Source of the DNA: Corynebacterium aurimucosum
Lineage (GTDB): Bacteria; Actinomycetota; Actinomycetes; Mycobacteriales; Mycobacteriaceae
DNA length: 64,000 nucleotides
Direction: 5' to 3'
Assembly (NCBI RefSeq): GCF_030408555.1
Contig: NZ_CP047048.1
Span: 434,001-498,000 of the forward strand
Shown: positions 2,307-42,512 of the stretch, in pieces
Position numbering within the stretch: position 1 is the first letter of the stretch
Layout: each line of letters starts with the position of its first letter
The notes under the pieces: model-generated
The model's database searches: none
What the model saw: only the letters and a program-made list of their open reading frames with translations
What the model was told of the DNA's origin: nothing
Position numbers and translations under genes: made by a program

Positions 2307-2394
2307 TGTCGCAGTAATCGGTGCGCGGCGGGGGCGGCGGGGCAACGAGTGTGCAACGAACCGAGAACGAGAAATTCTTTTGGTGCGTCTTTTA

Positions 2395-2612: not shown

Positions 2613-3155
2613 GTGAACGACCACCACGCCGACCGCACTGCGACCACCCGCACCACCGTCGAGGAACTCCTCGCCGAACCTGCCCTCGAGTCCATCGTGG
2701 GCTATGTTCCAGGCGGCTTCGATATGCTCCACATCGGCCACCTCAACATTCTGCGCGCCTCGCGCAAGCTGTGCACCACGCTCATTGCCGGCGTGGCCAC
2801 CGACGAGTCGCTCATTCGCATGAAGAACCGTGCTCCCATCGTCCCGCACGCTGAGCGCATGGAGCTCGTGCGCAGCTTGAGCTTCGTCGACGGCGTGATC
2901 GCCGACCATGACCAGGACAAGCGAGTCGCGTGGGAAGAAGTGCACTTTGACGTGCTCTTCAAGGGCGACGACTGGAAGGGTACGGAAAAGGGTGCGCGCC
3001 TGGAGGCTGAGCTCGCTGAGGTCGGTGCCCGCGTGGTCTACTTGCCGTACACGAAGTCGACCTCGTCGACGATGTTGCGTAAGTTCCTGGCCCACGAAAT
3101 CGCGGAGCGCGACGTGGCGCTCACCGGCGCTGGTGCCGCACGGGAAGAGGCATAA
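2613..3155 (+). CDS. TagD-like cytidylyltransferase (glycerol-3-phosphate or related alcohol phosphate)
   Basis: A 180-residue nucleotidyltransferase. The HIGH motif (LHIGH, residues 39-43) follows a GGFD segment, and the second conserved motif appears as STSSTM near the C terminus. Members of this family transfer CMP from CTP to an alcohol phosphate such as glycerol 3-phosphate. The next gene encodes a CDP-alcohol phosphatidyltransferase, so the likely sequence is activation here and transfer there. GTG start at 2613, preceded by GAAGAGAAAG. The first 25 residues are an extra, poorly conserved extension. The exact alcohol substrate is inferred, not shown. Confidence 0.8.
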   Translation: MNDHHADRTATTRTTVEELLAEPALESIVGYVPGGFDMLHIGHLNILRASRKLCTTLIAGVATDESLIRMKNRAPIVPHAERMELVRSLSFVDGVIADHDQDKRVAWEEVHFDVLFKGDDWKGTEKGARLEAELAEVGARVVYLPYTKSTSSTMLRKFLAHEIAERDVALTGAGAAREEA

Positions 3156-3161
3156 GGACCG

Positions 3162-3923
3162 ATGGCGACGACACAGTCTCGTTTTAGCTGGGCGATCGCG
3201 CAGCTTGACGCCGCGCAGAAGCCCGCGCAAGGCGTACCCGCGTATATGCGCTGGGTCAACCGGCGCGGTGCCCGCGTGATTGCGGCGCTGGGCTATCAGC
3301 TGCGCTGGACGCCGAACCAGGTCACGGCCATCTCCGCGTGCCTGTCGGTGGCGGGCATGCTCGTGCTCATCTTCGCGCCGTTTGCCGTGTCGACGGGCGT
3401 ACTTGCTGCAGTCCTGCTCGCGCTGGGCTTCCTTTTTGACTCCGCGGACGGCCAACTGGCGCGCGTGTCCAAGCTGTCGTCGAAGTCGGGCGAGTGGGTT
3501 GACCACGTCGTCGACGCGTTTCGCTCGCCGCTCGTTCACGTGGCCGTGGCCATCGCGGTCACGGCCCACGAGGGCCCGTACTCATGGCTGGCCTTGGTGG
3601 CGCTCGGGTACTCCGTTGTGACGAGTGGGCAGTTCCTCAGCCAGATTCTTGCTGAGGCGCTGGTGCGCAAGGCAGGCGCGCAGCAGACTCGCGGCGGCAA
3701 CCTGCGCTCGTGGATTTTGTTGCCTACCGACCCAGGTGTGCTGTGCTGGAGCTTTGTCTTCTGGGGCTGGGCGCCGGCCTTTGCCGTGGTCTACGGACTA
3801 CTCGCCGCCGTCGCCGCGGCGCACTCTGCGGTTTCGCTCACGCGCCGTTTTAAAGATCTCTCGGCCGTCGACCGCGCCGCAGCGGAGCTTGCCGATGTCC
3901 CCTCTGGAGGTGCTCATGCCTAG
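3162..3923 (+). CDS. CDP-alcohol phosphatidyltransferase family membrane enzyme
   Basis: A 253-residue integral membrane protein. Residues 93-118 carry the complete family signature D-x2-DG-x2-AR-x8-G-x3-D-x3-D (DSADGQLAR, then GEWVDHVVD), with metal-binding aspartates at 93, 96, 114 and 118. It joins a CDP-activated alcohol to an acceptor alcohol. It lies 6 bases after the cytidylyltransferase and its stop overlaps the next start, so the three genes form one translational unit. In this setting it may add a phospho-alcohol to a lipid or glycan of the island; acceptor and donor are unknown. Confidence 0.88.
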   Translation: MATTQSRFSWAIAQLDAAQKPAQGVPAYMRWVNRRGARVIAALGYQLRWTPNQVTAISACLSVAGMLVLIFAPFAVSTGVLAAVLLALGFLFDSADGQLARVSKLSSKSGEWVDHVVDAFRSPLVHVAVAIAVTAHEGPYSWLALVALGYSVVTSGQFLSQILAEALVRKAGAQQTRGGNLRSWILLPTDPGVLCWSFVFWGWAPAFAVVYGLLAAVAAAHSAVSLTRRFKDLSAVDRAAAELADVPSGGAHA

Positions 3924-4797
3924 GCTCAGCGTCCTCCTGCCGGCCCGCAACGCGCAGAACACCGTCGGTGAGGCGGTCTCCTCGACGCTGCGGGCCTTAC
4001 CGCGCGACGCGGAGCTCGTCGTCCTCGACGACGGCTCCACTGACGCGACGGCGGCCCGCGCGGCGGACGCAGGCCGGGGCGATGCGCGTCTGCGTGTGGA
4101 ATCCCAGCCGCCCTCTGGTGGCATCGCCGTAGCGCTGAACTGGCTTCTCGCGCACACGGACTCCGAGTTGGTGGGGCGCATGGACGCCGACGACATCACG
4201 CTGCCGTGGCGCTTCCGCAGCGCGCTGCCTGCACTCGGACGTGGCGCGGACATCGTGTTTAACCAGGTCCTCTACACCACAGGGGCGCGGACGCGTCCCG
4301 CGGTGCCACTGGGCATTACCCCGGCGGCGTTTGGCCTGCACCTGCTCCTGACGAATCCCGTCTCGCACCCAGCGATGGTTGCGACGCGTGCGGCACTCGA
4401 CTCCGTACGCGGCTACCGCGCGGTGCCCGCCGAGGATTATGACTTGTGGATGCGCGCCGTCAGCGCGGGCTTCCGCCTGCGCCGCCTGGGCGTGTGGGGG
4501 CTCAAGTACCGCGTCCACCCGGATCAGATCACGGCGTCGACTACGTGGCGCAGCGCGTCCTGGGATAACGCGGACCAGGCGGAGGCTTTCGGGGACTTGA
4601 GCGCGGCGCTCGTAGGCGAGCGTCTCACCCGCATTGTCACCCTCGCGCAGCATGACGCCTCGACTCGCGAACGGGAACTGGCGCACTTCGCCGACCTCAT
4701 TCGCACCGCTGGTCGCCGCCTAGGCCCCGTCCAGCACGCCGCCCTGGAACATCGCCTGCGTTCGCGTCTTGCGTGGGCGCGCGATATTTCTGCCTGA
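3916..4797 (+). CDS. GT2-family glycosyltransferase
   Basis: A 293-residue GT-A fold enzyme. VVLDDGSTD (residues 36-44) is the nucleotide-sugar-binding segment, and GRMDADD holds the metal-binding D-x-D (residues 90-92). No membrane segment is evident, so it should act at the cytoplasmic face. The ATG at 3916 overlaps the preceding stop by 8 bases. Sugar donor and acceptor cannot be deduced. Confidence 0.87.
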   Translation: MPRLSVLLPARNAQNTVGEAVSSTLRALPRDAELVVLDDGSTDATAARAADAGRGDARLRVESQPPSGGIAVALNWLLAHTDSELVGRMDADDITLPWRFRSALPALGRGADIVFNQVLYTTGARTRPAVPLGITPAAFGLHLLLTNPVSHPAMVATRAALDSVRGYRAVPAEDYDLWMRAVSAGFRLRRLGVWGLKYRVHPDQITASTTWRSASWDNADQAEAFGDLSAALVGERLTRIVTLAQHDASTRERELAHFADLIRTAGRRLGPVQHAALEHRLRSRLAWARDISA

Positions 4798-4845
4798 CCT
4801 TATCATCTTTTCTGTCCGTCCCCTTTGATTGAGGATCGTAAATTC

Positions 4846-5991
4846 ATGAACGACACCCGAAATGCCCCGTCTGACGCCGTGGGTTTTGACGTCTTGTGGG
4901 CTGCGCTCACCCAGCGCCCGCGGTGGATTGCCGTCGGCATCGTGGCGGGGCTCATCGCCGCGGCGGTGTACCTGGTGGTTACGCCGTGCAATTACGTGGC
5001 GAGTACCCAAGTCAACGTCGCCGCCGTGAGTGCCGACCCGCTGGTGGGGGACAAGGCGCCGTCGACGCTCGTGGACTTTTCCACGGAGCTGCAGATCGCC
5101 AAGTCTGCGGAGACGGCGCGCGCGGCGAAAGAAAAGCTCGGCGAGGACTGGACCACGGAGGAACTCCAGGGCGTGGAAGCGTCCGGTGATGCCGAGGGAA
5201 CCGTGGTGACGTTGACATACGCGAACCCGGACGAGGACCGCGCTATCGTGGGCGCCGATGCCTTGGCAACGGCGTACCTGAGCCAGCGCGTAAGCCTGAC
5301 CCGGGCCCGCGTGGAGGACACGAAGGCCTCTCTCGATGAGGCTATCGCGCGCTCCCAAGAAGATTTTGGTACCTCGACGAACGTCGTGCAGAAGGACATT
5401 TTGTCGCAACGTCTCGCTACGCTGCGCGACCGCCGGGCGGCTCTGAGCTACGTGAGCTTTGATGCTGGCAGTGTTATCGCCGCAGCAGGGGATAACCCGG
5501 TGTATCGCTCCCCGTCGCCGGTCAAGTTCCTCCTCGCGGGTGCGCTGGGCGGTCTCGTCTTCGGCGTCGTCCTTGCCTTATTGGCCTATACCTGGATGCG
5601 CCGCCCGCGCTCGATCGCGGATCTAGAGCGCGTCTTCCACGCGCCCGTGTTCATCGGCGTCGGCGCCGCGGGCGATGCCCAGCGCTGGGACCTCGCCGCC
5701 GCCCAAGCGGCGCACGCGACCCGCGGTGCCCAAGGTGTGACCGTGCTGCGTGATGGTGAGGACGCCGAGACCGTTGCGGCTGCAGACGCCGTTACACACG
5801 CCACAGGCGCTCAGATGCTCGCGGCCGACACCCACCGCGCTGAGCGGCTCGCCGCCGTACAACAGGGAACCGACGTGCTCCTCGTGGGCCCGGTGCGCTG
5901 GACCACGACGCAGTGCGCGGAGCTGCAGCGCGACCTCGCGAGCGTGGGCGTGACGCTGCGCGGCATCATTACGACCGCTGCGAAGCACTAA
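4846..5991 (+). CDS. Wzz-like polysaccharide chain-length/co-polymerase protein
   Basis: A 381-residue protein with a membrane segment near residues 28-46 and a second near residues 220-245. Between them is a large periplasm-side region with coiled-coil character, the Wzz plan. The C-terminal cytoplasmic part looks like a remnant of a bacterial tyrosine-kinase domain without a P-loop. Such proteins set polymer length together with a Wzy polymerase, which is encoded two genes downstream. I chose the ATG at 4846, with GAGG at 4831, over the longer TTG start at 4825. Confidence 0.78.
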   Translation: MNDTRNAPSDAVGFDVLWAALTQRPRWIAVGIVAGLIAAAVYLVVTPCNYVASTQVNVAAVSADPLVGDKAPSTLVDFSTELQIAKSAETARAAKEKLGEDWTTEELQGVEASGDAEGTVVTLTYANPDEDRAIVGADALATAYLSQRVSLTRARVEDTKASLDEAIARSQEDFGTSTNVVQKDILSQRLATLRDRRAALSYVSFDAGSVIAAAGDNPVYRSPSPVKFLLAGALGGLVFGVVLALLAYTWMRRPRSIADLERVFHAPVFIGVGAAGDAQRWDLAAAQAAHATRGAQGVTVLRDGEDAETVAAADAVTHATGAQMLAADTHRAERLAAVQQGTDVLLVGPVRWTTTQCAELQRDLASVGVTLRGIITTAAKH

Positions 5992-6003
5992 GGGAGGCCA
6001 CGA

Positions 6004-7326
6004 ATGACGCACTCCACCGTCCGCCCGGGCGCAGACAAGCCCGGCACGCCTGACCCTGCGGATATCGACGTGCTCGATATCGCACCTATCGCCATTGCGG
6101 TTTACGACCGCGGCACCGACACTCTGGAGATTCTCTCCGGTGATGAGAACGCCGAGCCTTCGTCCCACGAGGCCCGCGTGCTCATCCGCGAAGACGGACA
6201 CACGCTGGGCTACCGCGAGGTCACTGGCAGTCCTTTTGTTCCGCTCGATGAGCAGGAGCTGCACCGCCTCGCCCAAGCCGAGGCCGCCGGCCTGCCTGGT
6301 GTCCAGCGCGCGTGGACGCAGGGTGCGGGCGCGGGGCTGAGCGCCAGCCTTATTCTGTGCACGATGGGCCGCAACCCGTTGCTCCCACGCGCCGTGGCGG
6401 CGGCGCTCGCGCAGACACACAACGACCTTGAGGTCATCGTCGTCGATAACGCGCCTGCTACGGGGGATACCCGCCGCGCACTGGCAGGCATCGAGGACCC
6501 GCGTTTGCGCATCGTCGACGAACCCCGGGGCGGCTTGTCCCATGCCCGCAACCGCGGCGTGGCAGCGGCCCAGGGCGAGATCATTGCGTTCAGCGACGAT
6601 GACGCGCAGGTGCATCCGGAGTGGATGGCCAGCATCCTTGACGTCTTCGCCGCGGCCCCCGCCGGACAGATCGGCGCCGTGACCGGACCCGTCTTCCCCG
6701 CGCAGTTGCGCTATCCCTCGCAGTTCCTCTTTGAGGATCGCGGCGGTTTCCCCAAGCAAGTGCGCCCCACCGTCTGGGCCAGCGCCCCGCAACCCGCGGC
6801 GGTGCGTGCGTTGGGCGATCCGGGCGAAGGCGGCCCCTTCTTCCCCTTGACTACCGCGCGCGTCGGTGCCGGCGTCTCCATGGCGTATCCGCGTGCCGTC
6901 CTCTCCGAGATGGGCGAGTTCGACACCGCGTTGGGGGCCGGCAGCCTGACTAAGGGCGGCGAGGACCTCGATGCCTTCGCGCGTGTACTGCGTGCCGGTC
7001 GCGCCATCATCACAACGCCCGACGCGGTCGTTCACCACACCCACCGCGAGAACGTCGCCGGCCTAATCGCGCAGTCGTACGGCGATGGAACCGGCATGGC
7101 GGCGCTGCTCACCAAGGCGGTGACGCACCATCCCGCTGCGATCGCCTTGCTCGCACGCCGCATTCCGCGCATCCTGCGTCGCATCGCGCCGGGTTCGGAG
7201 CGCGTCCAAGGCAATGCGGGCAGCGGCTTGCCGATGCCCCCTCAGTTGCTGCGCCAAGAAATCCGAGGTTTCCTGCGTGGACCTGTTCTCTACGCGCAGG
7301 CCCGGTGGGCGACGAGGGCGTCATGA
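6004..7326 (+). CDS. GT2-family glycosyltransferase with an N-terminal extension
   Basis: A 440-residue protein. About 110 N-terminal residues are unlike a GT core. Then a GT2 domain starts at SASLILCTMGRN, with VIVVDNAP in the nucleotide-binding position and FSDDDAQ as the D-x-D motif. A GGEDLD segment follows, as in the catalytic part of many GT2 enzymes. Good ribosome-binding site GGGAGG before the ATG. The stop overlaps the next start (ATGA). The extension could be an acceptor or partner-binding module; substrate unknown. Confidence 0.83.
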   Translation: MTHSTVRPGADKPGTPDPADIDVLDIAPIAIAVYDRGTDTLEILSGDENAEPSSHEARVLIREDGHTLGYREVTGSPFVPLDEQELHRLAQAEAAGLPGVQRAWTQGAGAGLSASLILCTMGRNPLLPRAVAAALAQTHNDLEVIVVDNAPATGDTRRALAGIEDPRLRIVDEPRGGLSHARNRGVAAAQGEIIAFSDDDAQVHPEWMASILDVFAAAPAGQIGAVTGPVFPAQLRYPSQFLFEDRGGFPKQVRPTVWASAPQPAAVRALGDPGEGGPFFPLTTARVGAGVSMAYPRAVLSEMGEFDTALGAGSLTKGGEDLDAFARVLRAGRAIITTPDAVVHHTHRENVAGLIAQSYGDGTGMAALLTKAVTHHPAAIALLARRIPRILRRIAPGSERVQGNAGSGLPMPPQLLRQEIRGFLRGPVLYAQARWATRAS

Positions 7327-8633
7327 GCACGGGCGCGCACGACGCAGCGCGCCTGCCTGCTTGGCCGTTGCTCGCTCCGTTTGCCGCGTACGCGCTGTGG
7401 TGGCTGCTGGGAGTAGGAGACTTCATCTGGATTGTGGCCGCGGCCGTCATGGTCGTCACGTGGTTCGGCCGCCGGGAACTCGTTGCCGCAGTCCCGATTA
7501 TTATCTGGGCGTTGTTTTTGCTGTGGGTCGTTGCTTCGGTGCCGTTCAACGACACCCCGGGGCGCATCATCGGCGCGGTCTACCGCCTGTTGCTCTATGC
7601 CTCGGCCGGCGTCTTCGCAGTCCACGTCTACTCGGCGCGGGGGAGTCTGCCGGCGCACCGCGTGACGCGGGCGATGGTGTGGTTCCTCGTGGGCATGACC
7701 GCATGCGGTTACCTCGCGATGGCAGCGCCTGAACTCGTTATCCGCACGCCCACGTCGTATGTGACCCCGGGCTTCCTTAAACACAACGACCTCATCGCGG
7801 ACATGGTCATCCGTCGCACTTCGCAGTGGAACCCGAATGCCTGGGTCGCCCAGGACGTTCGCCCGGCCGCGCCCTTCCTCTATGCGAATACGTGGGGTAA
7901 CGTGTATTCCCTCGTCTTGCCCTTGGTGCTGCTCCACGCGTGGTTCGTGCGCAACAGCCCTCGCATGTGGGGCGTGCTGGCCATCGCGCTGGTGAGTCTG
8001 CCACCGGCCTTGGCGACGCTCAACCGCGGCATGTTTATCGGACTGGGCGTTGTCGCCGTGTGGGTGGGCTTTCAGGCTCTGCGGCGTGGCGCCATGCGCG
8101 CGGTGGGCAGCGCCGCACTGGGGCTCGTCCTCATCGCGACGGCGTGGTATTTCTCGCCCCTGGGCGCGAGCTTCTTTAACCGCGTCTCCACGACGAACTC
8201 CACGGACGACCGGTGGGCGCTCTACCGCACGACGTGGGCTCGCACGCTCGAGTCCCCGCTCTTCGGCTTTGGTTCTCCGCGCCCGGCGGAATATCCCTGG
8301 CTGCCGTCGCTCGGTACCCAGGGTCAGCTGTGGACCGTGCTGTTTTCCCATGGCATCGTTGGTCTCGTGCTGTTCCTACTGCCCTTCGTGCTGGGTTGGA
8401 TTGCGCTCATGCCGTGCCGTGACCCTGCGGGAGCCGTCCTTGGCGGTGTTCTGCTCGCCACGCTCGTGGAGACCTTCTTCTACGGCATGATGACAGGCGT
8501 GCTGGTTTCGCTCGTGGTGCTGGGCCTGGGGCTTCGCCACCGCGCCGCCGAGACCCAGAATCCCCTCCATCCTGCATCCCGGCGCACCGCCGCGGCGTCG
8601 GCGTCTCGGGCGGCATCCGCGCGGGCTCGCTAG
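7323..8633 (+). CDS. O-antigen ligase/Wzy-like polymerase
   Basis: A 436-residue, very hydrophobic protein with about ten to twelve predicted membrane segments and a larger extracellular loop in the middle (after residue 145). The region TLNRGMFIGLG and the following segments resemble the Wzy_C/O-antigen ligase core. It would polymerise or attach lipid-linked repeat units outside the membrane. The ATG at 7323 overlaps the upstream stop by four bases, linking it to the glycosyltransferase gene. Ligase and polymerase cannot be separated by sequence reading. Confidence 0.77.
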   Translation: MSTGAHDAARLPAWPLLAPFAAYALWWLLGVGDFIWIVAAAVMVVTWFGRRELVAAVPIIIWALFLLWVVASVPFNDTPGRIIGAVYRLLLYASAGVFAVHVYSARGSLPAHRVTRAMVWFLVGMTACGYLAMAAPELVIRTPTSYVTPGFLKHNDLIADMVIRRTSQWNPNAWVAQDVRPAAPFLYANTWGNVYSLVLPLVLLHAWFVRNSPRMWGVLAIALVSLPPALATLNRGMFIGLGVVAVWVGFQALRRGAMRAVGSAALGLVLIATAWYFSPLGASFFNRVSTTNSTDDRWALYRTTWARTLESPLFGFGSPRPAEYPWLPSLGTQGQLWTVLFSHGIVGLVLFLLPFVLGWIALMPCRDPAGAVLGGVLLATLVETFFYGMMTGVLVSLVVLGLGLRHRAAETQNPLHPASRRTAAASASRAASARAR

Positions 8634-8666
8634 CGGTGCGAGCCGTAAGCGAGGCGTGTCACGCGT

Positions 8667-9443
8667 CTAGCAGCGTGGATCGTCCGGGAAGCTCGTCTTC
8701 ATCAGCTTCCACTGGCCGTCGACGCGCTCGAAGGTGAGCAACGTGATCGAGCGACGTTCGCTCGCCGGCAGGTTCGGGGTGATATCCGTGCCGTCGGCGT
8801 CGAAGGTACGCACCCCGGAATTGTCCACACAGGCGCGCACCACGCGCGTCGTGCCGTCCGAGGCGCCCTCGTCGGCAGGCGCCAGTGCGACGGCCTCCAC
8901 GACCTCACCGGTGCCTTCTCGGCGCCAGCCATTGGACTCGTATTCGATGCGCTGGTTCTCCGCGTCCTCGAGCGCGTCGGCACCCAGGGCCTCGGAGGCG
9001 CGTGCCGGTAGCGCCTCGCTCGGGTTCGTAAGGGCTTCTTGCCCTGCGGCGAGGGCCGCACCGACGCCCTGCGCATCAAGCCCCGCGGGCATCTCCATCG
9101 TCGCGGTGGGAGAGTGCGGTGCTGCAGCGCGGCCAGCACGCGGCGTGTCCTTCGCGTCCCCGTCGGACGAGCCGCCGCGGCGTCCCGACCCTAGCTCCTT
9201 CGCGGCATCGGTAGTTTCTGCCGCACCAGATGTAGGTGCCTGCGAGGTCGATGACGCGGACGCCGAGCGTGTTTCTTTGGTGCTTTCAGTGGCCAAGGCC
9301 GGCGCATCCGTGGCGGTGTTCTCGTCCGCCTCGTCCTTGCTACAGGCAACGAGGCTAGCGACCAAGGCAATTCCGACGCTTGTCGAGAAACCTTTTCGCA
9401 AAAAACCTTGCCGACCATGAAAAGAGTATTTAAAATCCCGCAT
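8667..9443 (-). CDS. Predicted secreted lipoprotein of unknown function
   Basis: 258 residues with a positively charged start, a hydrophobic stretch and a lipobox LVAC with the cysteine at residue 34, so probably anchored to the outer face of the cytoplasmic membrane. A long Ser/Thr/Ala-rich, low-complexity linker follows to about residue 130. The C-terminal part ends in DGQWKLMKT, as in small NTF2/SnoaL-like folds of other actinobacterial lipoproteins; this is a weak resemblance. It runs against the island genes and probably has its own promoter in 9444-9561. Confidence 0.7.
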   Translation of the reverse strand: MRDFKYSFHGRQGFLRKGFSTSVGIALVASLVACSKDEADENTATDAPALATESTKETRSASASSTSQAPTSGAAETTDAAKELGSGRRGGSSDGDAKDTPRAGRAAAPHSPTATMEMPAGLDAQGVGAALAAGQEALTNPSEALPARASEALGADALEDAENQRIEYESNGWRREGTGEVVEAVALAPADEGASDGTTRVVRACVDNSGVRTFDADGTDITPNLPASERRSITLLTFERVDGQWKLMKTSFPDDPRC

Positions 9444-9561
9444 GATTCTTATTTTATCCAGACATCCTATAGGGTGTTAATGAGATGAATGTACAGGAAT
9501 CTAGAAAGAAATAGAACTGGCTTATTGATAGCTATTAAAAAGCCGTAGAAAGTGAAAGTAT

Positions 9562-11148
9562 ATGAGCGCACCAAGAGCTGGCGCAGAGACCGCGGCTAAC
9601 GACCGTGCGCACGACGCGTCCGCAGCGACGGCGGCGGCAGAGAACTCGGGCTCACAGCAGCGCGAACTCGCCCGCGGCGGAGCCTTAAGCTTTGTCGGAT
9701 CGGCGACCAGCGCAGCCTTGGGTTTTGTCCTCACCATCGTCATTTCGCGACTTTTTGGTGCGGCACACGCGGGAATTATTTTTCAGGCTACTGGTGCGTT
9801 TTCCGTCGTCCTTGCCTTTGCCAAATTCGGGCTGGATTCGACGTCAAATTACCTTCTTCCCCGCGTAAAGATCGACGATGCGCGGCAGGTTCGCCCTGTC
9901 GTCTACGGCTTCCTTATCATTGCGGTGGCCGTGAGTCTGGTGCTCGTTGTTGCACTGGAGATCGCCGCGCCCTTATTGTGGACTGACAACCCCGAGGTCG
10001 CGCGCTCGGTGCGCGTGATTGCGCTCTTTATTCCTTTCGGCTCTGTATTTCTCATCCTTGCTGCCATCCTGCGTGCCCTGGGCTCAGTGCGCGACTACGT
10101 GATGGTGGCAAATATCGGCCTTCCCGTCCTGCGTCCGCCTTTCATCGCCGTCGTGGCGGTAGCGGGTGGCGCGGCGGTGGCGGCATCGGCGGCGTGGGCA
10201 CTGCCCATGGCGCTCATGGCGGTGGCGGCAGCCGTGCTAGTGCTGCGGCGCCTACGCCGTATCGAAGAGGTTCATGGTGCCTCGGAGCGTGCGCTGCCGC
10301 GCGCGAGCCAGGTCCGTGAGGTCTTCGGGTTTGCGGTCCCGCGCACGCTGTCCGCGGGACTGGAACAGGCCATTGTGTGGTTCGACGTGTTGCTTGCCGG
10401 CTGGCTTCTTAGCGACCACGCGGCAGGCATCTACGCCGGCGCCTCCCGCTTCGTTCAAGCCGGCTTGCTTGTCGATGCCGCGCTGCGCGTCGTCGTTTCC
10501 CCGCAACTGTCCGCATTGCTGCACCGCGGCGAGATGTCGCGTACCCGCGAGCTTTACCTCACCGCCACGATGTGGCTCGTGCTCATTGGCACGCCGGCGT
10601 ACGTGTTTTTGGGCTTCTTCGCGCCGATCTTCCTCGGGCTGCTGGGCCCTGAGTTCCGCGAGGGCGGAACGGCGCTGGCGGTTCTTGCGGCAGGCGTGGC
10701 CGTGACGTTCTTGGCGGGCAATATCCACTCGCTGCTCGTTATGAGCGGCCGCAGTGGATGGGCCGCGTTCAACAAGCTCGTCGTCTTGGCCGTCAACGTC
10801 GGCGCGAATTTCGTGCTCATGCCGCGCTACGGGATCATCGGCGCCGCCGTGGCGTGGTCCGCTTCGATGGTGCTTGATGCGCTCATGGCCGCCGTCGAGG
10901 TCAAGGTCTTTCTGGGCATTGCGCTCACGGCGCGGGAGGTTCTTGCCCCCGTCGCCGTGGTGCTCGGCACGCTTGGCCTCGCTTCCGGTGTGGCGGTGTG
11001 GCTGGGTGGCCAGAGCCTGTGGGCGCTCCTCGGGGCGCTTGCGGTCGGCGGTGCTGCGTATATCGCAGTGTGCTGGCGGTGGCGCGCGCTGCTACGCCTT
11101 GGAGCGCTGGGCGAGCTCGTCGCCGCCAAACAAGGAAAGCGCTCGTGA
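9562..11148 (+). CDS. Wzx/MurJ-like polysaccharide flippase
   Basis: 528 residues with about fourteen predicted membrane segments, starting after a 40-residue Ala/Ser-rich cytoplasmic N terminus. The pattern (GALSFVGSATSAALGFVLT near the start, repeated hydrophobic pairs, short loops) matches the polysaccharide-export branch of the MOP superfamily. It would flip lipid-linked repeat units across the membrane for the polymerase encoded upstream. The spacing after the reversed lipoprotein gene suggests a separate promoter. Confidence 0.8.
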   Translation: MSAPRAGAETAANDRAHDASAATAAAENSGSQQRELARGGALSFVGSATSAALGFVLTIVISRLFGAAHAGIIFQATGAFSVVLAFAKFGLDSTSNYLLPRVKIDDARQVRPVVYGFLIIAVAVSLVLVVALEIAAPLLWTDNPEVARSVRVIALFIPFGSVFLILAAILRALGSVRDYVMVANIGLPVLRPPFIAVVAVAGGAAVAASAAWALPMALMAVAAAVLVLRRLRRIEEVHGASERALPRASQVREVFGFAVPRTLSAGLEQAIVWFDVLLAGWLLSDHAAGIYAGASRFVQAGLLVDAALRVVVSPQLSALLHRGEMSRTRELYLTATMWLVLIGTPAYVFLGFFAPIFLGLLGPEFREGGTALAVLAAGVAVTFLAGNIHSLLVMSGRSGWAAFNKLVVLAVNVGANFVLMPRYGIIGAAVAWSASMVLDALMAAVEVKVFLGIALTAREVLAPVAVVLGTLGLASGVAVWLGGQSLWALLGALAVGGAAYIAVCWRWRALLRLGALGELVAAKQGKRS

Positions 11149-11201
11149 CTTGGCGCCTCGGTGCCGCTTTCGCAGCGAAACACAACTTTAGAAAGAACTC
11201 C

Positions 11202-14200
11202 ATGTCTCACTCACGATTTTCGCTTCTCGCCGCAGCGGTTGCGCTGTGCGCCGGTATCCTCGCGCCCGTCGCAGGCGCGCAGGAGCCGGCGCCGAGTCCA
11301 GCGGCACAAGACACCCCGGCCGTCGTCACGCGGGACGGGTCCAGCCCGGACCGAGCTGCCGCGTCCTGTTGGGCTATTAAACAAGACAACCCTGATGCCA
11401 AGAACGGCTCCTACTGGCTGCTCACCCCGCAGATGGAGGCGCCGCAGGAATTCTTCTGCGATCAGGAAATGGACGGTGGCGGCTGGGTCATGATTGGTCG
11501 CGGCCGCGAAGGTTGGGACCGTTACCCCGCAGGCCAAGGCGATATTTCCGCGCTCACTAGCCGTGATCGCACCCCGGCGGACTTCGCTCCGGCGCAGCTG
11601 CCCACCAAGACCATCGATGGTCTGCTGAGCGGCCAGCACATCAACGAGTTGGACGAGGGTATGCGCGTCGTGCGTGCCACCAATAACTCCGGTACGCGCT
11701 GGCAGACCGCGGATATCAAACCGCAGCGCATGGAGAACTGGTCGTGGGCGCTTTCCGCCGAGGACCCGGCGCTCTTCCGTTTCGATAATGGGCCCTTGTG
11801 GTACCGCGCAGACCGTACGGACAGGTTCATGGGCAACGCCATCGGCCTGCGCGGCATAGATATTTCCACCACGCGGGCCCGGCAATACAAGATCGGCTTC
11901 GGCTATGGCCCGTGGAAAAGGGTCGGCCGTACGGGGGCTGACTCATTTATTTGGAGCACGAATGGATATGCCGCGCTGCCGTACGCGGAGCTGTATCTGC
12001 GCCCGCAGCTGAGCAACGCCGATGCCGGATTTGAGCCCATCCCGGATGCCGGCCTCGACGAGGTAACGAATTCCGCAGTCGTCTCGAGCTTCTCGTCGCC
12101 CACGCAGTGGGGCGTGACAGGTAACCTGACCGGCCGTAGCACCGAGGGTAACGCCCCCGTGCAGGCCTTTGCGCAAAAAGACGACACCGTCTTCGTGGGC
12201 GGCAATTTCACGGCGGCAGAAAACCACGCGACGGGCGAGTCCCTCCCGCGCACCGCGGTCGCCGCGTTCGACGCCACCACGGGTGAGGTCCGCCGCGACT
12301 TTGCCGTGGATCTCGACGGTCAGGTCAAGGCTCTCCTCGTTCTGCCCAACGGCAAGCTGCTTATCGGCGGTGATTTCCTGCGCGCCGGCGGCGAAGAGCA
12401 CCGCGGCACCGTCCTCGTGGATCCGAAGACGGGCGCTATCGATGCATCGTGGACGCTCAACGTCGTCTCGCGTCTGCGCGACGGCATTATCAGCGTCAAG
12501 GCGCTGTCTCTCTCCGGGGACCATGTTTACCTCGGCGGTAAGTTCACCCACCTCACCAGCGGCGGCGACAATTACATCTACGCGCGTTCCGCAGGCCGCG
12601 TGAGCCTGGACGGCGTGCCGGACCGCTCGTGGAATCCCGAATTCAACGGCACCGTGGTGGACACGGACGTCTCGGCTGACGGCGGGCGTTTCTACGCGGC
12701 GGGCTACTTCACGAAGTCCGTGGACAACCCGGTGAACAAAGCAGCGGTCCTCACCACGGCCGCAGGTGCCGCTCCGGCCGTGGACTTCCAGTTCCAGGCC
12801 AGCGACACCAGCGCCACCTACCAGCAAGCCATCGAGGATTCTGGCGAGCTCGTCTTCATTGGCGGCGCCCAGCACTCCCTCTTCGGTTACGAGCCGCAGA
12901 GCATGAACCGCGTCTCTGGCTCCATCATGAGCTCCAACGGCGGCGACGTGCAGACTATCGCTTCCAACGGCGAGGTCACCTACGCCAGCTGCCACTGCAA
13001 TGAGAACGCCTACCAGGATTCCTACTCGTGGCCGACGCTGAGCGAGTCCCGCACCCGCATCGACAACATCCAGTGGGTCGGTGCCTGGGACGCCAAGACC
13101 GGCAAGCAGCTGGGCGAGTTCTCACCGTACATGCTGGGGTCGAACAACGGCGGCGGCTGGTCGCTGTTCATCGCGGAGGACGGCGCGCTGTGGGCTGGCG
13201 GCGACTTCACCGGTTCCCGCACGAATCTCACCACAGCACAGTGGAACGGCGGCTTCGTCCGCTACCCGGCCCAGGACCGCGAGGCTCCCCGCGTGCCGGA
13301 TAAGGTCACCTTCAACCAATCTACTGCGAAGACCGTCGGCCTGACCTGGGCTGAGGCTTCCGATGCCGCCAGCTACGAGGTCTTGCGTGACGACCGCGTC
13401 GTCGCGACGTCGATCAGCCCGCGCGCCACCGTGCCGCGCGGTGGCGATGACCGCTACTTCGTCCGAGCAGTGGACGAGGCGGGCAACCGTTCCGCGACGA
13501 CCCACGTGGCCGTCGCGCCGGAGGCAGGTTCGCTCGGCTACGACGACCCTCAGCTCATCGCCGCGGGCGCGGACTGGCAGTACTCCTATAACCAGGGCGC
13601 GCCGGACGCTGCGTGGAATACCACCGAGGGCACGCGCGACGGATGGCAGGCGGGTGCTGCGCCGCTGGGTTACGGCGGCGCGGATCTCGGCACCGAATTC
13701 CAGACGCCGGCCGCGGCACAGCGCCCCGTCACCGCGTGGTTTGCGCATCTCTTCGACGTCGCGGACCCGACAGCGTTTACGACGGCGACGCTTAAGGTCA
13801 TTGCCGATGATGGCGCTGTGGTCTACGTCAATGGCCACGAGGTCGGACGCGTCCGCATGGACGAGGGCGACGTGAAGGACACCACCCGCGCGAATGCCGT
13901 GGTCTCCGCCGCGCGCGCCGCAGAGGAGCGCACGACGATCGACATCCCGTCCTATTACTTGAAGCCCGGCGAAAATATCGTCGCTGTGGAAACCCACCTC
14001 AATTACAAGTCCAGCCCGTCCCTGACTTTCGACGCGTCGTTGCTCGTCACGGATTCGGCACCGGCCACCATCACGGAGATTCCGGTGGACCGCAGCGAGC
14101 TCATCGCCGCGGGCGCGGACTGGCGCTACTCCTACGCTGCCGATGCCCCCGCCGAGGATTGGGCCACCACCCTCGACGTCGCAGACTGGAACGAGGACGC

Positions 14201-14783
14201 CGCTCCCATCGGCTGGGGTGCTGGTGACGTTGCCACGCCGTTGACCTACGCCGCGAACACCGCGTACTTCGTTAACGACATTGAGCTCTCTGAGGACGAC
14301 CTCGCCGCCTTGCGTGAACAACACGGCGACGACGCGGTGGTGCGTCTCGAGGTCCGGGCCGACGATGCCGCGCTTGTGCGACTCAACGGCGAGGAAGTCG
14401 GCCGCGTCCGCTTGGGCGAGCCTCGGTCTGAGGTCGCCCACACCGCGTATGCGGATAGCTCCGTGAGCGCGTCGGTTGCCGCGCGCGACCGCTATGTCGT
14501 CGAGGTTCCGCTGTCGCGCTTCCATGCGGGCAGCAACCGCCTGGCCGTCGAAACCCACCTCAATTATAAGTCGGCTCCGTCCTTCGTCTTCGACCTCAGC
14601 GCCACGGTCACCGAGCCCTCGGGCGATCCCGCCCTCGCCGCGCTGGCCGAAGCCGCCGCGGACCTCGCCGAGGATTCCGTCGCAGAAGCCGATGACGATG
14701 CCGCAGAAGCCGAGCTCACTGACGATGCCGCTGCCGACGACGTTGACGCTGCAGCTTCTGCAGACGCAGACGCGGAACAATAA
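11202..14783 (+). CDS. Large secreted fibrinogen-like / beta-propeller / FN3 protein
   Basis: 1193 residues, start at the ATG at 11202, followed by a Sec signal peptide (cleavage likely after APVAGA, about residue 26). Residues 50-270 form a fibrinogen-like domain with FFCDQEMDGGGW, the bacterial YCDxxxxGGGW signature. Residues 290-690 contain at least six repeats built around VFVGGNFT, LLIGGDF, VYLGGKFT and LWAGGDFT, read as a beta-propeller. Residues 690-775 resemble a fibronectin type III domain. Two homologous domains follow (about 780-960 and 960-1150); both begin LIAAGADW and end near VETHLNYKS. The tail of about 40 residues is Asp/Glu/Ala-rich. There is no LPxTG motif or C-terminal anchor. 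It lies between the flippase and a glycosyltransferase, so it may bind or process the island's polymer. Confidence 0.82.
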   Translation: MSHSRFSLLAAAVALCAGILAPVAGAQEPAPSPAAQDTPAVVTRDGSSPDRAAASCWAIKQDNPDAKNGSYWLLTPQMEAPQEFFCDQEMDGGGWVMIGRGREGWDRYPAGQGDISALTSRDRTPADFAPAQLPTKTIDGLLSGQHINELDEGMRVVRATNNSGTRWQTADIKPQRMENWSWALSAEDPALFRFDNGPLWYRADRTDRFMGNAIGLRGIDISTTRARQYKIGFGYGPWKRVGRTGADSFIWSTNGYAALPYAELYLRPQLSNADAGFEPIPDAGLDEVTNSAVVSSFSSPTQWGVTGNLTGRSTEGNAPVQAFAQKDDTVFVGGNFTAAENHATGESLPRTAVAAFDATTGEVRRDFAVDLDGQVKALLVLPNGKLLIGGDFLRAGGEEHRGTVLVDPKTGAIDASWTLNVVSRLRDGIISVKALSLSGDHVYLGGKFTHLTSGGDNYIYARSAGRVSLDGVPDRSWNPEFNGTVVDTDVSADGGRFYAAGYFTKSVDNPVNKAAVLTTAAGAAPAVDFQFQASDTSATYQQAIEDSGELVFIGGAQHSLFGYEPQSMNRVSGSIMSSNGGDVQTIASNGEVTYASCHCNENAYQDSYSWPTLSESRTRIDNIQWVGAWDAKTGKQLGEFSPYMLGSNNGGGWSLFIAEDGALWAGGDFTGSRTNLTTAQWNGGFVRYPAQDREAPRVPDKVTFNQSTAKTVGLTWAEASDAASYEVLRDDRVVATSISPRATVPRGGDDRYFVRAVDEAGNRSATTHVAVAPEAGSLGYDDPQLIAAGADWQYSYNQGAPDAAWNTTEGTRDGWQAGAAPLGYGGADLGTEFQTPAAAQRPVTAWFAHLFDVADPTAFTTATLKVIADDGAVVYVNGHEVGRVRMDEGDVKDTTRANAVVSAARAAEERTTIDIPSYYLKPGENIVAVETHLNYKSSPSLTFDASLLVTDSAPATITEIPVDRSELIAAGADWRYSYAADAPAEDWATTLDVADWNEDAAPIGWGAGDVATPLTYAANTAYFVNDIELSEDDLAALREQHGDDAVVRLEVRADDAALVRLNGEEVGRVRLGEPRSEVAHTAYADSSVSASVAARDRYVVEVPLSRFHAGSNRLAVETHLNYKSAPSFVFDLSATVTEPSGDPALAALAEAAADLAEDSVAEADDDAAEAELTDDAAADDVDAAASADADAEQ

Positions 14784-14795
14784 GGAGAATCCCGC

Positions 14796-15551
14796 ATGAC
14801 GTATAACAGCACCACCGACCGCGTCCCGTCCAGCGCGGGCGCATCACCTGCACCGGATCCGGCCGTGGCGGAGTTCGCTCGGCGCATCGCACGACCCGGC
14901 GCCGTGGTCACATGGCTTAACCACTGGTCGGTGCAGCAGGCGCAGTGGTCTGCGCTCGAAACCATGACGGACATCGGCATCGACGGCACGCTGCTTCAGC
15001 TCATGCTGGCGCGTTGCGGCATGGACATGGGCCGCACCTCGGCCGACCTCGTCCTTCCGGTCCTGTTTCGTGACGTCCTCGAGCCGGACCAGCGCATTGC
15101 GTTCATCGGCTCCGCGCCGGGCGTGGCGACGCGGGCGGCGGAGCGCATCGGCGGGCACCAGACCTGCGCCTTCGACGGCTACGGCGAGCTCAAGGAGCTG
15201 CGCCGCGATCCGTCGCAGCTGCGCGCCTGGCGTCCCGACGTCGTCGTGCTGGGCCTAGGCGCACCGCTGCAAGAGGAAGTCGCTGCCGAGCTGCACGTTG
15301 CGCTGCCCGAAGCCATCGTGTGTACCGCCGGTGGCTGGATCGATCAGCTGGCCGCCAATGAGCAGTACTTCCCGGTGTGGGTCCACAAGTACCGCCTAGG
15401 CTGGGCGTGGCGCATAGCGCACGAGCCGCGCCGACTCATCGGCCGCTACACCGTCGATGCAGTCGGCTTCCTGCGCCGCCTGCCGCGCATCGTGTCTGAC
15501 CTTCGGGTGCTGCCCCACAAGGCCGACGCCACGGGCTTCCACCGCGGCTAA
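14796..15551 (+). CDS. WecG/TagA/CpsF-family glycosyltransferase
   Basis: 251 residues. The family pattern is visible: IAFIGSAPG, then VVVLGLGAPLQEE (the usual G-x-P-x-QE region), then AGGWIDQLA and the C-terminal EPRRLIGRY. These GT26 enzymes add the second sugar (often ManNAc) to an undecaprenyl-linked first sugar. The start is 12 bases after the fibrinogen-like gene, with AAGGAG before the ATG. It closes the plus-strand island and is followed by a strong terminator. Confidence 0.87.
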   Translation: MTYNSTTDRVPSSAGASPAPDPAVAEFARRIARPGAVVTWLNHWSVQQAQWSALETMTDIGIDGTLLQLMLARCGMDMGRTSADLVLPVLFRDVLEPDQRIAFIGSAPGVATRAAERIGGHQTCAFDGYGELKELRRDPSQLRAWRPDVVVLGLGAPLQEEVAAELHVALPEAIVCTAGGWIDQLAANEQYFPVWVHKYRLGWAWRIAHEPRRLIGRYTVDAVGFLRRLPRIVSDLRVLPHKADATGFHRG

Positions 15552-15771: not shown

Positions 15772-16225
15772 AAGTGGCGAAGAAGGCGGTTTAGTACGCG
15801 CCTTCTTGCGTGGCAAGCACCTTGAAGGTGCGGAAGAAGATCATGATGTCCATGCCGAACGAACGCTCAGCACAGTAGCGCAGGTCCAGGTTGATGGAGT
15901 CTTCCCACGACAAGGTGGAACGCCCCATAACCTGCCACAGGCCCGTGATTCCCGGCTTGGCGTTGAACTTGCCCAGCTCACGCGGGGTGAACTTGGCGAC
16001 CTCGCGCGGCAGCGGCGGGCGCGGTCCGATAAGCGACATGCGGCCGGTGAGCACGTTGAAGAGCTGTGGCAGTTCGTCGAGGCTTGTGCGGCGCAAGAAG
16101 CGGCCCACGCGCGTGATGCGCGGGTCGTCCTGCAGCTTGAAGAGCACCTCGTTGCCAGCGTTGCCTGCGGAGGCTTGGGCGGCGAGGGGGCCTGACCCCC
16201 GGAAAGTAGACACGTCGGGGGTTAG

Positions 16226-17068
16226 CTATGCTGCTTGGGTCAGTGTAGCTGATGTGAGTGCTTCGAAGTCATCGGGGGCTAGAAGGTTGCACCAGGAGTG
16301 CCGTCTGCGCGTGTTGTAGCGCATGCACCATCGGAAGACTTCTTGGCGGCAGATGATGGGATTGTCAAAAACTTTCCTATCTCGCAGAACTTCACGCTTT
16401 AAAGTGGCGTTAAACGATTCTGCCAGGGCATTATCGGCACTCGTTCCCACTGCTCCCATGGATTGGCGAACACCAAGTTGGGTGCAGTGGTCTTGAAAAG
16501 CCTGTGAGGTGTACACACTGCCATGATCAGAATGGAAAATTACCCCTTTAAGGCTTCCGCGAACCTTGCTGGCATGGGACAAAGCTTCGATAACCAGCGA
16601 TACCCGCATGTGATCGGCGAGCGCATGACCGACAAGTTTGCGCGAGTAGACGTCGATGACTGTGGCAAGGTACATGTTCTTGCCTCCCTTACACGGCAGG
16701 TAGGTGATATCGCCTACATACACCTGGTTCGGCTTATCAGCGGTGAATTTGCGGCCTACTAAATCTGGCATGACTCGATGACCAGGCTTGCGCCTGGTAG
16801 TGACACATCGACGTTGTTTGGTAAAGCCTTTTAGCCCCATGGATTTCATAATGCGTGCGACCTTCTTGTGATTGATCGGAGGAAAGTCCGTATCGGCTTT
16901 AAGGCTTGCAGCGATGCGTTTAGCACCATAAAGCCCGTGCTCATCATCGAAGATGCTCTTGATTCGTGCACCAATAAGAGCATCCGAACACATCTTTAAC
17001 CTGCGTTTTTCGCGGGTGTTGACCCATTTGTAGAACGAGGAGCGATTGAGCTTTAACACGTGGCACAT
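16226..17068 (-). CDS. IS3-family transposase OrfB (DDE integrase domain)
   Basis: 280 residues from the first ATG. The reading frame stays open upstream to about 17140, in the -1 frame relative to orfA, as expected for production by programmed frameshifting. HTH_21-like start (RSSFYKWV), then an rve catalytic core with Asp in YVGDITYL, Asp in FHSDHGSVY and Glu in NALAESFNA. No stop or missing catalytic residue is visible, so this copy may be active. Confidence 0.9.
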   Translation of the reverse strand: MCHVLKLNRSSFYKWVNTREKRRLKMCSDALIGARIKSIFDDEHGLYGAKRIAASLKADTDFPPINHKKVARIMKSMGLKGFTKQRRCVTTRRKPGHRVMPDLVGRKFTADKPNQVYVGDITYLPCKGGKNMYLATVIDVYSRKLVGHALADHMRVSLVIEALSHASKVRGSLKGVIFHSDHGSVYTSQAFQDHCTQLGVRQSMGAVGTSADNALAESFNATLKREVLRDRKVFDNPIICRQEVFRWCMRYNTRRRHSWCNLLAPDDFEALTSATLTQAA

Positions 17069-17118
17069 CCGCTTGACCGAGTACTCGGTTCGATGGTCAT
17101 AGACAAACTGGAAGCGGA

Positions 17119-17418
17119 TTACCAGCGTGTCTCTTCGGCAAAATATTTCGCGGCCTTACGCAGGATATCGCGTTCTTCACGAAGCTTAGAGACTTCTTTT
17201 TCTAGCTGACGGATTCGTTCAGAATCAGTCGTCGCCTGTGCCTTGTCGCGCATGCTTTTTGTGCGGACACGCTTGCCGGTGCCGTACTGCTTAAGCCAGG
17301 AATAAAGTGAGGAACGATTGATTCCTAGCTCTGCTGAAGCCGCGTGAAGTGAGAGGTCCTCATTGTTTTCGTAGAGGGCCACAGCATCACGTTTGAACTG
17401 TTCGGAGTACCTAGGCAT
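17119..17418 (-). CDS. IS3-family transposase OrfA (helix-turn-helix, leucine zipper)
   Basis: 99 residues. The N-terminal helix-turn-helix (FKRDAVALYENN to SSLYSWLKQYG) is followed by a heptad-rich segment (RIRQLEKEVSKLREERDIL) for dimerisation. The stop lies about 50 bases upstream of the first orfB ATG. The probable -1 slip site is the A/T-rich run near 17137-17148, where orfA reads AKYFAEE. Confidence 0.88.
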   Translation of the reverse strand: MPRYSEQFKRDAVALYENNEDLSLHAASAELGINRSSLYSWLKQYGTGKRVRTKSMRDKAQATTDSERIRQLEKEVSKLREERDILRKAAKYFAEETRW

Positions 17419-17783
17419 GGTGGTAGATTACCTTTCTTCCCAACCCAACAGGGCTGGATATCAGGTGTCTACCTAACAGGGGTCAGGTCCAGGAGCTGGT
17501 CCACGAGCTGCTCGGCGTTCGTGCGCATGGTGCGGAATTTGAGCATGGTGAAGTGTCCCTGGCGGTAGCCGACGCGGGTCTGCGCGAAGAAGACCGGGCC
17601 GCCATCGTCAAGCTTGATGAGGAGCGCAACGATGAGCAGGACAGGAGAGAGAAGAATGAGCGCCGTTGCGGAGAGTAGAATGTCGCTGATGCGCTTGGCC
17701 CCCGTGTACAGCGCCGGGGCGTCGGACGAACGATCCGGGATGACAGCGAGGGTACTCGCGGGACGGAGATTGGGAGTCGTCAT

Positions 17784-19056: not shown

Positions 19057-19071
19057 TGCCCCGGGTTTTTC

Positions 19072-19995: not shown

Positions 19996-20002
19996 TCATT
20001 TC

Positions 20003-38605: not shown

Positions 38606-38659
38606 TCTAGAACCCACTGCGCCGTGGGAGGGTGGCGCACTGATTCGGGGAGGATTCTC

Positions 38660-42382: not shown

Positions 42383-42512
42383 GGAAAGTACCTCCCCCGA
42401 AAAATTTTTCTGGGCAACCCCTTGCCCATTGCCTCACATTGTGGCTTACTTGTGGCACGCTGTCCACCGCTTAAGGAGGCGGTGGAGTACTTCGGGGGGG
42501 AAGGACTTTGAC

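What the first reader, a model, noticed from the sequence alone, without database searches (positions are those of the whole stretch)
2613..15551. Surface-polymer island that joins CDP-alcohol chemistry, Wzx/Wzy-type assembly and a fibrinogen-like protein
The sequence shows TagD-like and CDP-alcohol phosphatidyltransferase genes coupled by overlaps to GT2, Wzz-like and Wzy-like genes, then a flippase, a 1193-residue secreted protein and a WecG/TagA enzyme. Known families suggest a polyprenol-linked glycan carrying a phospho-alcohol. Such a combined plan is neither standard corynebacterial arabinogalactan or lipoglycan synthesis nor a plain capsule locus. The product is an inference and could be new.
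Basis: partly seen in the sequence, partly recalled or inferred. Interest (0 to 1): 0.72.

Follow-up and report, generated by a model that had tools for sequence, protein, structure and literature searches.

The report
Conserved phospho-alcohol surface-glycan gene cluster
A block of eleven genes in a Corynebacterium, shared almost gene for gene with Actinomyces and Schaalia relatives, probably builds a surface sugar polymer carrying a phosphate-linked alcohol by an uncommon enzyme pair and comes with its own secreted lectin-like protein; in this strain the starting enzyme is split by a jumping element.

Summary
Window 2613-15551 encodes the named genes. Missed were a membrane-anchored protein gene on the other strand (8667-9443), an initiating phosphoglycosyl transferase (PGT, 15791-17783) and an IS3-type element that splits it here. 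The order recurs in 10 of 242 Corynebacterium genomes; six of its genes keep this order in 13 of 13 Actinomyces/Schaalia-type loci. The ten genes measured are under purifying selection. In 7 of 10 carriers a flank fits the rpsQ/rplN gap. Best reading: PGT, WecG and two GT2 enzymes build a lipid-linked oligosaccharide; the TagD-like enzyme makes a CDP-alcohol and the membrane CDP-alcohol phosphotransferase adds the phospho-alcohol; Wzx flips the unit and Wzy/Wzz polymerise it. The CDP-alcohol enzyme is additional to two others in 7 of 7 carriers tested; TagB/F is absent from 13 of 13 and LicD from 10 of 10 corynebacterial carriers. The alcohol, its acceptor and the secreted fibrinogen-like protein's role are inferred. 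Two of 13 Actinomyces-type loci lack Wzy and Wzz there. My paper searches found no named polymer.

The parts
2613..3155 (+). TagD-like CTP:phospho-alcohol cytidylyltransferase (180 aa)
   Evidence: PF01467 55 bits; H40, G42, H43 and G118-W121 (GDDW) invariant in 18 sequences; matches glycerol-3-P, ethanolamine-P and Fom1-type cytidylyltransferase chains
3162..3923 (+). Membrane CDP-alcohol phosphotransferase (253 aa)
   Evidence: PF01066 49.4 bits; DxxDGxxAR-x8-GxxxDxxxD present in the window protein; D93, D96, G97, R101, G110, D114, D118 invariant in 20 sequences; best solved match AF2299
3916..4797 (+). GT2 glycosyltransferase a (293 aa), ATG overlaps the previous gene's end
   Evidence: PF00535 66.3 bits; sequence
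4825..5991 (+). Wzz-like chain-length protein; two membrane segments, tail without Walker A motif
   Evidence: PF02706 24.8 bits, just under cut-off 25.5
6004..7326 (+). GT2 glycosyltransferase b with about 110-residue N-terminal extension
   Evidence: PF00535 84 bits at residues 115-237
7305..8633 (+). Wzy/O-antigen-ligase type membrane protein
   Evidence: PF04932 35.3 bits; nine hydrophobic windows
8667..9443 (-). Membrane-anchored protein, here with a lipobox (LVAC by eye), outer domain of NTF2-like fold with two invariant Cys
   Evidence: same place and strand in relatives; alignment of 16: C205 and C258 invariant; lipobox Cys in the 8 corynebacterial rows, not in the other 8; AlphaFold blocks from residue 120 on mostly 87-97; fold hits Tim44, ARC6, CaMKII hub; the name NTF2-like is recalled
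9562..11148 (+). Wzx-type flippase
   Evidence: PF01943 44.3 bits
11202..14783 (+). Secreted 1193-aa protein: hydrophobic signal-like start, fibrinogen-like YCDxxxxGGGW domain, beta-propeller, FN3, two jelly-roll-like repeats (43% identical), acidic tail
   Evidence: NF040941 63.7 bits
14796..15551 (+). WecG/TagA/CpsF-type glycosyltransferase
   Evidence: PF03808 87.8 bits
15791..16213 (-). C-terminal piece of the initiating phosphoglycosyl transferase (Bac_transf)
   Evidence: PF02397 positions 65-177
16188..17490 (-). IS3-type element (ORFs 17119-17418 and 16226-17068) that splits the PGT; flanks overlap by 3 bases against G012; bounds are those of the alignment, approximate; IS3 type judged by eye
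17469..17783 (-). N-terminal piece of the initiating phosphoglycosyl transferase
   Evidence: PF02397 positions 1-64

Best explanation
The island is a conserved gene cluster for a Wzx/Wzy-type surface glycan that carries a phospho-alcohol. Predicted steps: (1) the PGT puts a sugar-1-phosphate on polyprenyl phosphate; (2) the WecG/TagA-type enzyme and the two GT2 enzymes add further sugars, giving about a tri- to tetrasaccharide; (3) the TagD-like enzyme makes a CDP-alcohol (glycerol or ethanolamine most likely, unproven) and the membrane CDP-alcohol phosphotransferase moves the phospho-alcohol to the lipid-linked glycan, in place of a TagF or LicD enzyme; (4) Wzx flips the unit, Wzy polymerises it under Wzz control; (5) the membrane-anchored NTF2-like protein and the secreted fibrinogen-like/propeller/jelly-roll protein act outside on the product (binding, holding or ligating it). 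Gene content, order and conservation are shown; steps 1, 2 and 4 follow from family knowledge; steps 3 and 5 are inferred. In this strain step 1 is probably blocked because the only PF02397 gene is split.
For: Order TagD-CDPOH-GT2a-Wzz-GT2b-Wzy-minus-strand protein-Wzx-FBG-WecG in 10 of 10 corynebacterial carriers (G000 and G012 are near-identical), with a PGT at one end in 10 of 10, split in the window's own. CDPOH, GT2a, GT2b, minus-strand protein, Wzx and FBG in this order in 13 of 13 Actinomycetaceae-type loci. dN/dS 0.018-0.178 for ten genes. CDP-OH enzyme additional: 3 PF01066 copies in 7 of 7 carriers tested against 2 in 4 of 5 genomes without the enzyme. PF04464 in 0 of 13 carriers, LicD in 0 of 10 corynebacterial carriers, PEP mutase over cut-off in 0 of 13. 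Catalytic motif intact. One PGT gene only in 8 of 10 genomes searched; in the six corynebacteria among these it is the cluster's.
Against: No chemistry known. Two of 13 Actinomycetaceae-type loci (L037, L043) have no Wzz or Wzy match at this place. Wzz is just below its cut-off. The TagD-like protein misses the g3p_cytidyltrns equivalog cut-off by far (67 against 165.4), so the alcohol is open. In a class-wide sample 8 of 20 TagD-like loci showed no CDP-OH gene in the stretch read. One of 5 genomes without the enzyme also has three PF01066 copies. Two of three Actinomycetaceae genomes carry LicD genes elsewhere.
Confidence: 0.6

Rival explanations
1. The TagD-like/CDP-OH pair makes a special phospholipid head group (as CDP-choline or CDP-ethanolamine phosphotransferases do with diacylglycerol) that serves as the lipid anchor of the glycan (a lipoglycan) rather than decorating its repeats.
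For: Solved CDP-OH matches after AF2299 include choline/ethanolamine phosphotransferases, which act on diacylglycerol (established knowledge). By whole-chain score the best solved cytidylyltransferase match is human ethanolamine-phosphate cytidylyltransferase, though per domain B. subtilis TagD (70.7) and the Fom1-type chain (70.0) score above it (64.0).
Against: The pair lies first in a run of glycan-assembly genes and, in Corynebacterium, was found only with them (10 of 10); a PGT and WecG indicate a polyprenyl-PP start, which needs no other anchor for assembly.
Confidence: 0.2
2. The glycan is attached to protein: the Wzy_C enzyme acts as an O-oligosaccharyltransferase, or the secreted fibrinogen-like protein is the carrier (glycoprotein system).
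For: The Wzy_C family includes ligases and oligosaccharyltransferases (established knowledge); the secreted protein is a fixed member of the cluster and stands in two tandem copies in L037, L088 and L089.
Against: A Wzz-like protein fits polymerisation, not protein transfer; the secreted protein has no clear Ser/Thr-rich stretch by eye; L037 and L043 keep the secreted protein yet show no Wzy match.
Confidence: 0.1
3. A teichoic-acid-type polymer with the polyol phosphate in the main chain.
For: TagD-like and WecG/TagA-like enzymes are teichoic-acid hallmarks.
Against: TagB/F-type polymerase (PF04464) in 0 of 13 carriers while 3 of 14 control genomes ring; export is by a Wzx, no ABC exporter among the cluster's genes.
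Confidence: 0.07
4. Decaying remnant without function in this lineage.
For: PGT split here; the near-identical G012 has WecG out of frame by one base against the window; G019 keeps only a TagD scrap behind rpsQ.
Against: Genes of other carriers are under purifying selection (two species pairs), and the window's other ten genes are open.
Confidence: 0.03

Closest known systems
Wzx/Wzy-dependent capsule or exopolysaccharide loci (including a GumD/GumM-type start by PGT plus WecG-family enzyme; the Gum comparison is recalled)
   Same: PGT, GT2s, WecG family, Wzx, Wzy, Wzz-like
   Different: Adds a TagD-like/CDP-alcohol phosphotransferase pair, a membrane-anchored NTF2-like protein and a large secreted fibrinogen-like protein as fixed members
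Wall teichoic acid synthesis (TagO-TagA-TagB-TagD-TagF-TagGH)
   Same: TagD-like and TagA-family enzymes
   Different: TagB/F family in 0 of 13 carrier genomes; Wzx instead of an ABC exporter in the cluster
AF2299 and related CDP-alcohol phosphotransferases; choline/ethanolamine phosphotransferases
   Same: Catalytic motif and sequence similarity
   Different: Genetic setting in a glycan operon; acceptor unknown
Glycerol-3-P and ethanolamine-P cytidylyltransferases; Fom1 cytidylyltransferase domain (5x3d; its Fom1 identity is recalled)
   Same: HxGH; GDDW shared with TagD and 5x3d
   Different: YTxxTSS where B. subtilis TagD has RTEGIST; below equivalog cut-offs; no PEP mutase over cut-off in 13 carriers
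Fibrinogen-related lectins (intelectins and others)
   Same: Profile positions about 54-117 match intelectin, angiopoietin, tenascin and fibrinogen chains; NCBIfam domain NF040941 over cut-off
   Different: Rest of the domain unmatched and modelled at low confidence; propeller and jelly rolls added

Membership tests
Wzx/Wzy-dependent surface polysaccharide locus | Flippase (PF01943) and Wzy_C membrane protein (PF04932) | tested here: met
   44.3 and 35.3 bits, both above cut-off; Wzy without match in 2 of 13 Actinomycetaceae-type loci
Wzx/Wzy-dependent surface polysaccharide locus | Initiating phosphoglycosyl transferase in the cluster | tested here: met
   PGT at a cluster end in 10 of 10 corynebacterial carriers, but as two pieces around an IS3-type element in the window
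Wzx/Wzy-dependent surface polysaccharide locus | Wzz co-polymerase | tested here: inconclusive
   24.8 bits against cut-off 25.5; two membrane segments; no match in L037, L043
Wzx/Wzy-dependent surface polysaccharide locus | A polymer is made | not testable with these tools
   chemistry needed
Wall teichoic acid pathway | TagB/F polyol-phosphate transferase (PF04464) | tested here: not met
   0 of 13 carrier genomes; controls B. subtilis, Bacteroides ihuae and Lactococcus lactis ring
Wall teichoic acid pathway | TagD equivalog (TIGR01518 cut-off) | tested here: not met
   67 bits against 165.4
Wall teichoic acid pathway | TagGH ABC exporter | not tested
   none among the cluster's genes; genome not searched for it
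CDP-alcohol phosphotransferases (PF01066) | DxxDGxxAR-x8-GxxxDxxxD motif and family score | tested here: met
   49.4 bits; motif residues D93, D96, G97, R101, G110, D114, D118 invariant in 20 sequences, the A of AR is S in some; motif pattern itself recalled
Household phospholipid synthesis | Copy conserved across the genus, independent of glycan genes | tested here: not met
   strong match in 7 of 151 genomes; at least two other PF01066 copies are present in 12 of 12 genomes tested
LicD-type phosphocholine decoration | LicD transferase in the genome | tested here: not met
   0 of 10 corynebacterial carriers; 2 of 3 Actinomycetaceae have LicD away from the cluster
Phosphonoglycan synthesis | PEP mutase over TIGR02320 cut-off | tested here: not met
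   0 of 13 over cut-off; sub-cut-off matches (at most 128 of 319.55 bits) in 8 of 13, also in 6 of 14 controls; no control is over the cut-off, so there is no positive control
Fibrinogen-like YCDxxxxGGGW proteins (NF040941) | Domain score over cut-off | tested here: met
   63.7 bits against 30
Intelectin-type lectins | Calcium and diol-binding site in the later part of the domain | tested here: inconclusive
   only about profile positions 54-101 align with intelectins; model there mostly below pLDDT 60

The most novel reading that the evidence does not exclude
The cluster defines an undescribed route of glycan phospho-alcohol decoration in Actinomycetota: a TagD-like cytidylyltransferase feeds a membrane CDP-alcohol phosphotransferase that acts on polyprenyl-linked oligosaccharide instead of a phospholipid acceptor, and a co-encoded secreted fibrinogen/intelectin-like propeller protein recognises the resulting exposed diol or phospho-alcohol and holds the polymer at the surface: a bacterial self-glycan lectin made with its own ligand.
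Probability: 0.25. Interest if true: 0.7.

Novelty: new variant of a known kind. Interest (0 to 1): 0.5.

Why it matters
If right, a class of surface polymers shared by some corynebacteria and by Actinomyces/Schaalia is set by one portable 11-gene module, and a CDP-alcohol phosphotransferase family known from phospholipid synthesis works on glycans. It would tell where to look for phospho-alcohol antigens in these commensals and give a test case for bacterial fibrinogen-like proteins whose ligand is encoded next door. The split PGT here, the WecG out of frame in the near-identical G012 and the scrap in G019 suggest repeated loss of the trait.

Tried and rejected
A natural TagD-CDP-OH fusion (P0082) was rejected: it runs from inside TagD into the middle of the CDP-OH protein at a shared short word, so it looks like a deletion chimera on a 1240-base contig. 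A phosphonate route, suggested by the match to 5x3d (titled phosphoenolpyruvate phosphomutase, its Fom1 identity recalled), was set aside for lack of a PEP mutase over cut-off (no positive control there). A dedicated LCP ligase was looked for: 2 LCP genes in 8 of 10 genomes, 3 in 2 of 10, and the window genome's two lie far from the island. The fibrinogen-like protein search in 301 genomes of the family found the own copy and one weak match (2 of 301); I cannot tell how many of the other carriers that sample held, so I used the TagD-like search of the 242 genus genomes for the census and found the protein in the carriers by direct reading. The AlphaFold model of the secreted protein is poor overall (mean pLDDT 59.9); only the propeller part (about 320-500) is trusted. 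Its Foldseek hits to rhamnosidase and beta-galactosidase have rmsd about 28-38 and are not used. In one search the C. pilosum GT2b and G463 WecG came out as stubs of 7 and 8 residues and the Pauljensenia hongkongensis TagD ran on through a stretch of N; the stubs were left out of the tree and the run-on TagD was cut before the X run.
Full report
What is there. The window is part of a 2.74-Mb genome in two contigs. 20,000 of the 20,681 bases of the small contig were compared: they match plasmid NZ_CP068167.1, labelled Corynebacterium aurimucosum, and NZ_CP068163.1, labelled C. glucuronolyticum, both at 100.0%. The island is 99.98% identical in DNA over 16,188 bases to genome G012. I take the organism as C. 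aurimucosum or very near it. That G012 is strain ATCC 700975 is recalled from its chromosome size, not shown. Three things were missed: a gene on the minus strand at 8667-9443, a phosphoglycosyl transferase on the minus strand at 15791-17783, and an IS3-type element that splits it.

Site. rpmC and rpsQ lie upstream (G000:C1:426820-427373) and rplN downstream (20780), so the island stands between rpsQ and rplN. Flanks fit this gap, on one or both sides, in 7 of 10 corynebacterial carriers: G000, G012, G029, G026, G135, G509, G502. In G463 rplN-rplX lie before TagD instead, so the exact site differs; in G141 and C. pilosum no ribosomal gene was seen in the stretches read. G019 has a 114-base TagD scrap close behind rpsQ with no other cluster gene matched before rplN.

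Conservation. Of 242 Corynebacterium genomes, 16 match the TagD-like protein at E 1e-3 or better: 10 at 65% identity or more over most of its length (two of them, G000 and G012, near-identical strains), one is the G019 scrap, five are distant (27-36%). The CDP-OH enzyme has a strong match (66-100%) in 7 of 151 genomes; the other 42 of the 49 matching genomes show only weak similarity. In 10 of 10 carriers the order is TagD, CDP-OH, GT2a, Wzz, GT2b, Wzy, minus-strand protein, Wzx, FBG, WecG; the PGT is on the opposite strand behind WecG in 8 and ahead of TagD in 2. In the genome-contig scan 20 loci encode a CDP-OH relative. Of these 20, 18 hold Wzx, 17 TagD, and 16 a strong FBG match plus two with a weak one; L050 is a weak match with none of the partners. 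The 13 loci L032-L043 and L049 (Actinomyces, Schaalia, Pauljensenia, and two contigs labelled Xylanimonas and Sanguibacter that group with Schaalia odontolytica) all keep CDP-OH, GT2a, GT2b, minus-strand protein, Wzx, FBG in this order; TagD is seen in 12, Wzz in 11, Wzy in 11. L037 and L043 have no match to Wzz or Wzy between GT2a and the minus-strand protein.

History. A concatenated tree of eight proteins from 25 loci, rooted on Leucobacter and the Arthrobacter and Galactobacter MAGs, puts the nine corynebacterial rows in one group (split support 1.000), next to A. provencensis and an Actinomyces MAG, inside the Actinomycetaceae sequences. This fits one transfer between the two groups; the direction is inferred. 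dN/dS is 0.018-0.072 (G026/G135) and 0.046-0.178 (G029/G509) for the ten genes other than PGT (own Nei-Gojobori script; dS above 1 for several genes makes those ratios rough). A class-wide search found the TagD-like family at E 1e-25 in 65 of 394 genomes and 20 of 137 genera. I fetched 20 loci from the stronger of these: 12 of 20 also hold the CDP-OH gene in the stretch read, 12 of 20 some FBG-protein match (in most only part of it, in three about 940 of 1139 profile positions), and 8 of 20 show no CDP-OH gene, for some of them with a stretch cut short by the contig end.

Mechanism. The CDP-OH protein has the full catalytic motif. In 7 of 7 carriers tested there are two other PF01066 genes and this third one; of five genomes without it (one of them G019, which has the TagD scrap) four have two and one has three. 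A CDP-alcohol needs a user: TagB/F is absent from 13 of 13 carriers, LicD from 10 of 10 corynebacterial carriers (two of three Actinomycetaceae have it elsewhere). So the neighbouring CDP-OH enzyme is the best candidate. LtaS-type transferases were not searched for. The TagD-like family keeps HxGH and GDDW but has YTxxTSS where B. subtilis TagD has RTEGIST, and fails the glycerol-3-phosphate equivalog cut-off; the alcohol is therefore open. No PEP mutase passes its cut-off in 13 of 13. The number of transferases suggests a unit of three to four sugars; no sugar-nucleotide genes were recognised in the cluster, so common nucleotide sugars are probably used (inference).

The outer proteins. The minus-strand protein has a confident outer domain with matches to NTF2-like folds (Tim44, ARC6, CaMKII hub; fold name recalled). 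Its lipobox Cys is present in the 8 corynebacterial rows of the alignment and absent from the other 8, which keep a hydrophobic start. The secreted protein has a hydrophobic signal-like start, no C-terminal sortase motif (one LPRTA lies inside, at residue 348) and no other membrane segment; a fibrinogen-like start, a propeller with good confidence, an FN3 domain and two jelly-roll-like repeats 43% identical to each other. It stands in two copies in L037, L088 and L089. The protein search found 713 relatives at E 1e-3 among 7997 scored, best 120 listed. Part of its first domain matches intelectins. Intelectin-1 binds exocyclic vicinal diols through calcium (PMC12800186, passages seen), a group that a terminal phosphoglycerol would offer (chemistry known). 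This link is a lead only: the later part of the domain does not align and is poorly modelled.

State in this strain. The only PF02397 gene found in the genome is the split one, while in G012 it is open. In G012, WecG is out of frame by one base against the window. Both strains may lack the polymer, unless another enzyme such as WecA starts it; WecA was not searched for.

Known or not. Genome paper PMC2830990: by term search the words polysaccharide, glycosyltransferase, fibrinogen and genomic island do not occur in its main text; only two passages were seen. Paper searches gave listings and abstract starts only; none of what they showed names this cluster or its product. The library lacks most subscription papers, so this is not proof that it is unpublished.

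Noticed in passing
window 594-2345 (-) and the window's left edge: Dynamin-like GTPase gene (PF00350) with a second GTPase-like gene beside it (read in G012); the same pair stands near the cluster site in G029 and G019.
   Followed up: partly
window 16188-20314: Three transposase-type elements in a row (IS3-type inside the PGT, another transposase-like ORF at 18201-19088, a second IS3-type at 19072-20314; types by eye) between the island and rplN.
   Followed up: partly
L051 17124-17877: WecG is out of frame by one base in G012, near-identical to the window strain: a second, different hit on the cluster, or a sequencing error.
   Followed up: partly
L089 8054-15203, L037, L088: Two neighbouring copies of the fibrinogen-like protein gene in Schaalia odontolytica and relatives.
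   Followed up: partly
window 38624-47368: ESX/type VII secretion genes (EccB PF05108; FtsK/SpoIIIE PF01580).
   Followed up: no
L038, L049: Contigs titled Xylanimonas cellulosilytica and Sanguibacter keddieii carry loci that group tightly with Schaalia odontolytica; labels look doubtful.
   Followed up: no
L062 (G000 contig 2): Plasmid matching records labelled C. aurimucosum and C. glucuronolyticum at 100.0%; one label may be wrong or the plasmid moved recently.
   Followed up: no
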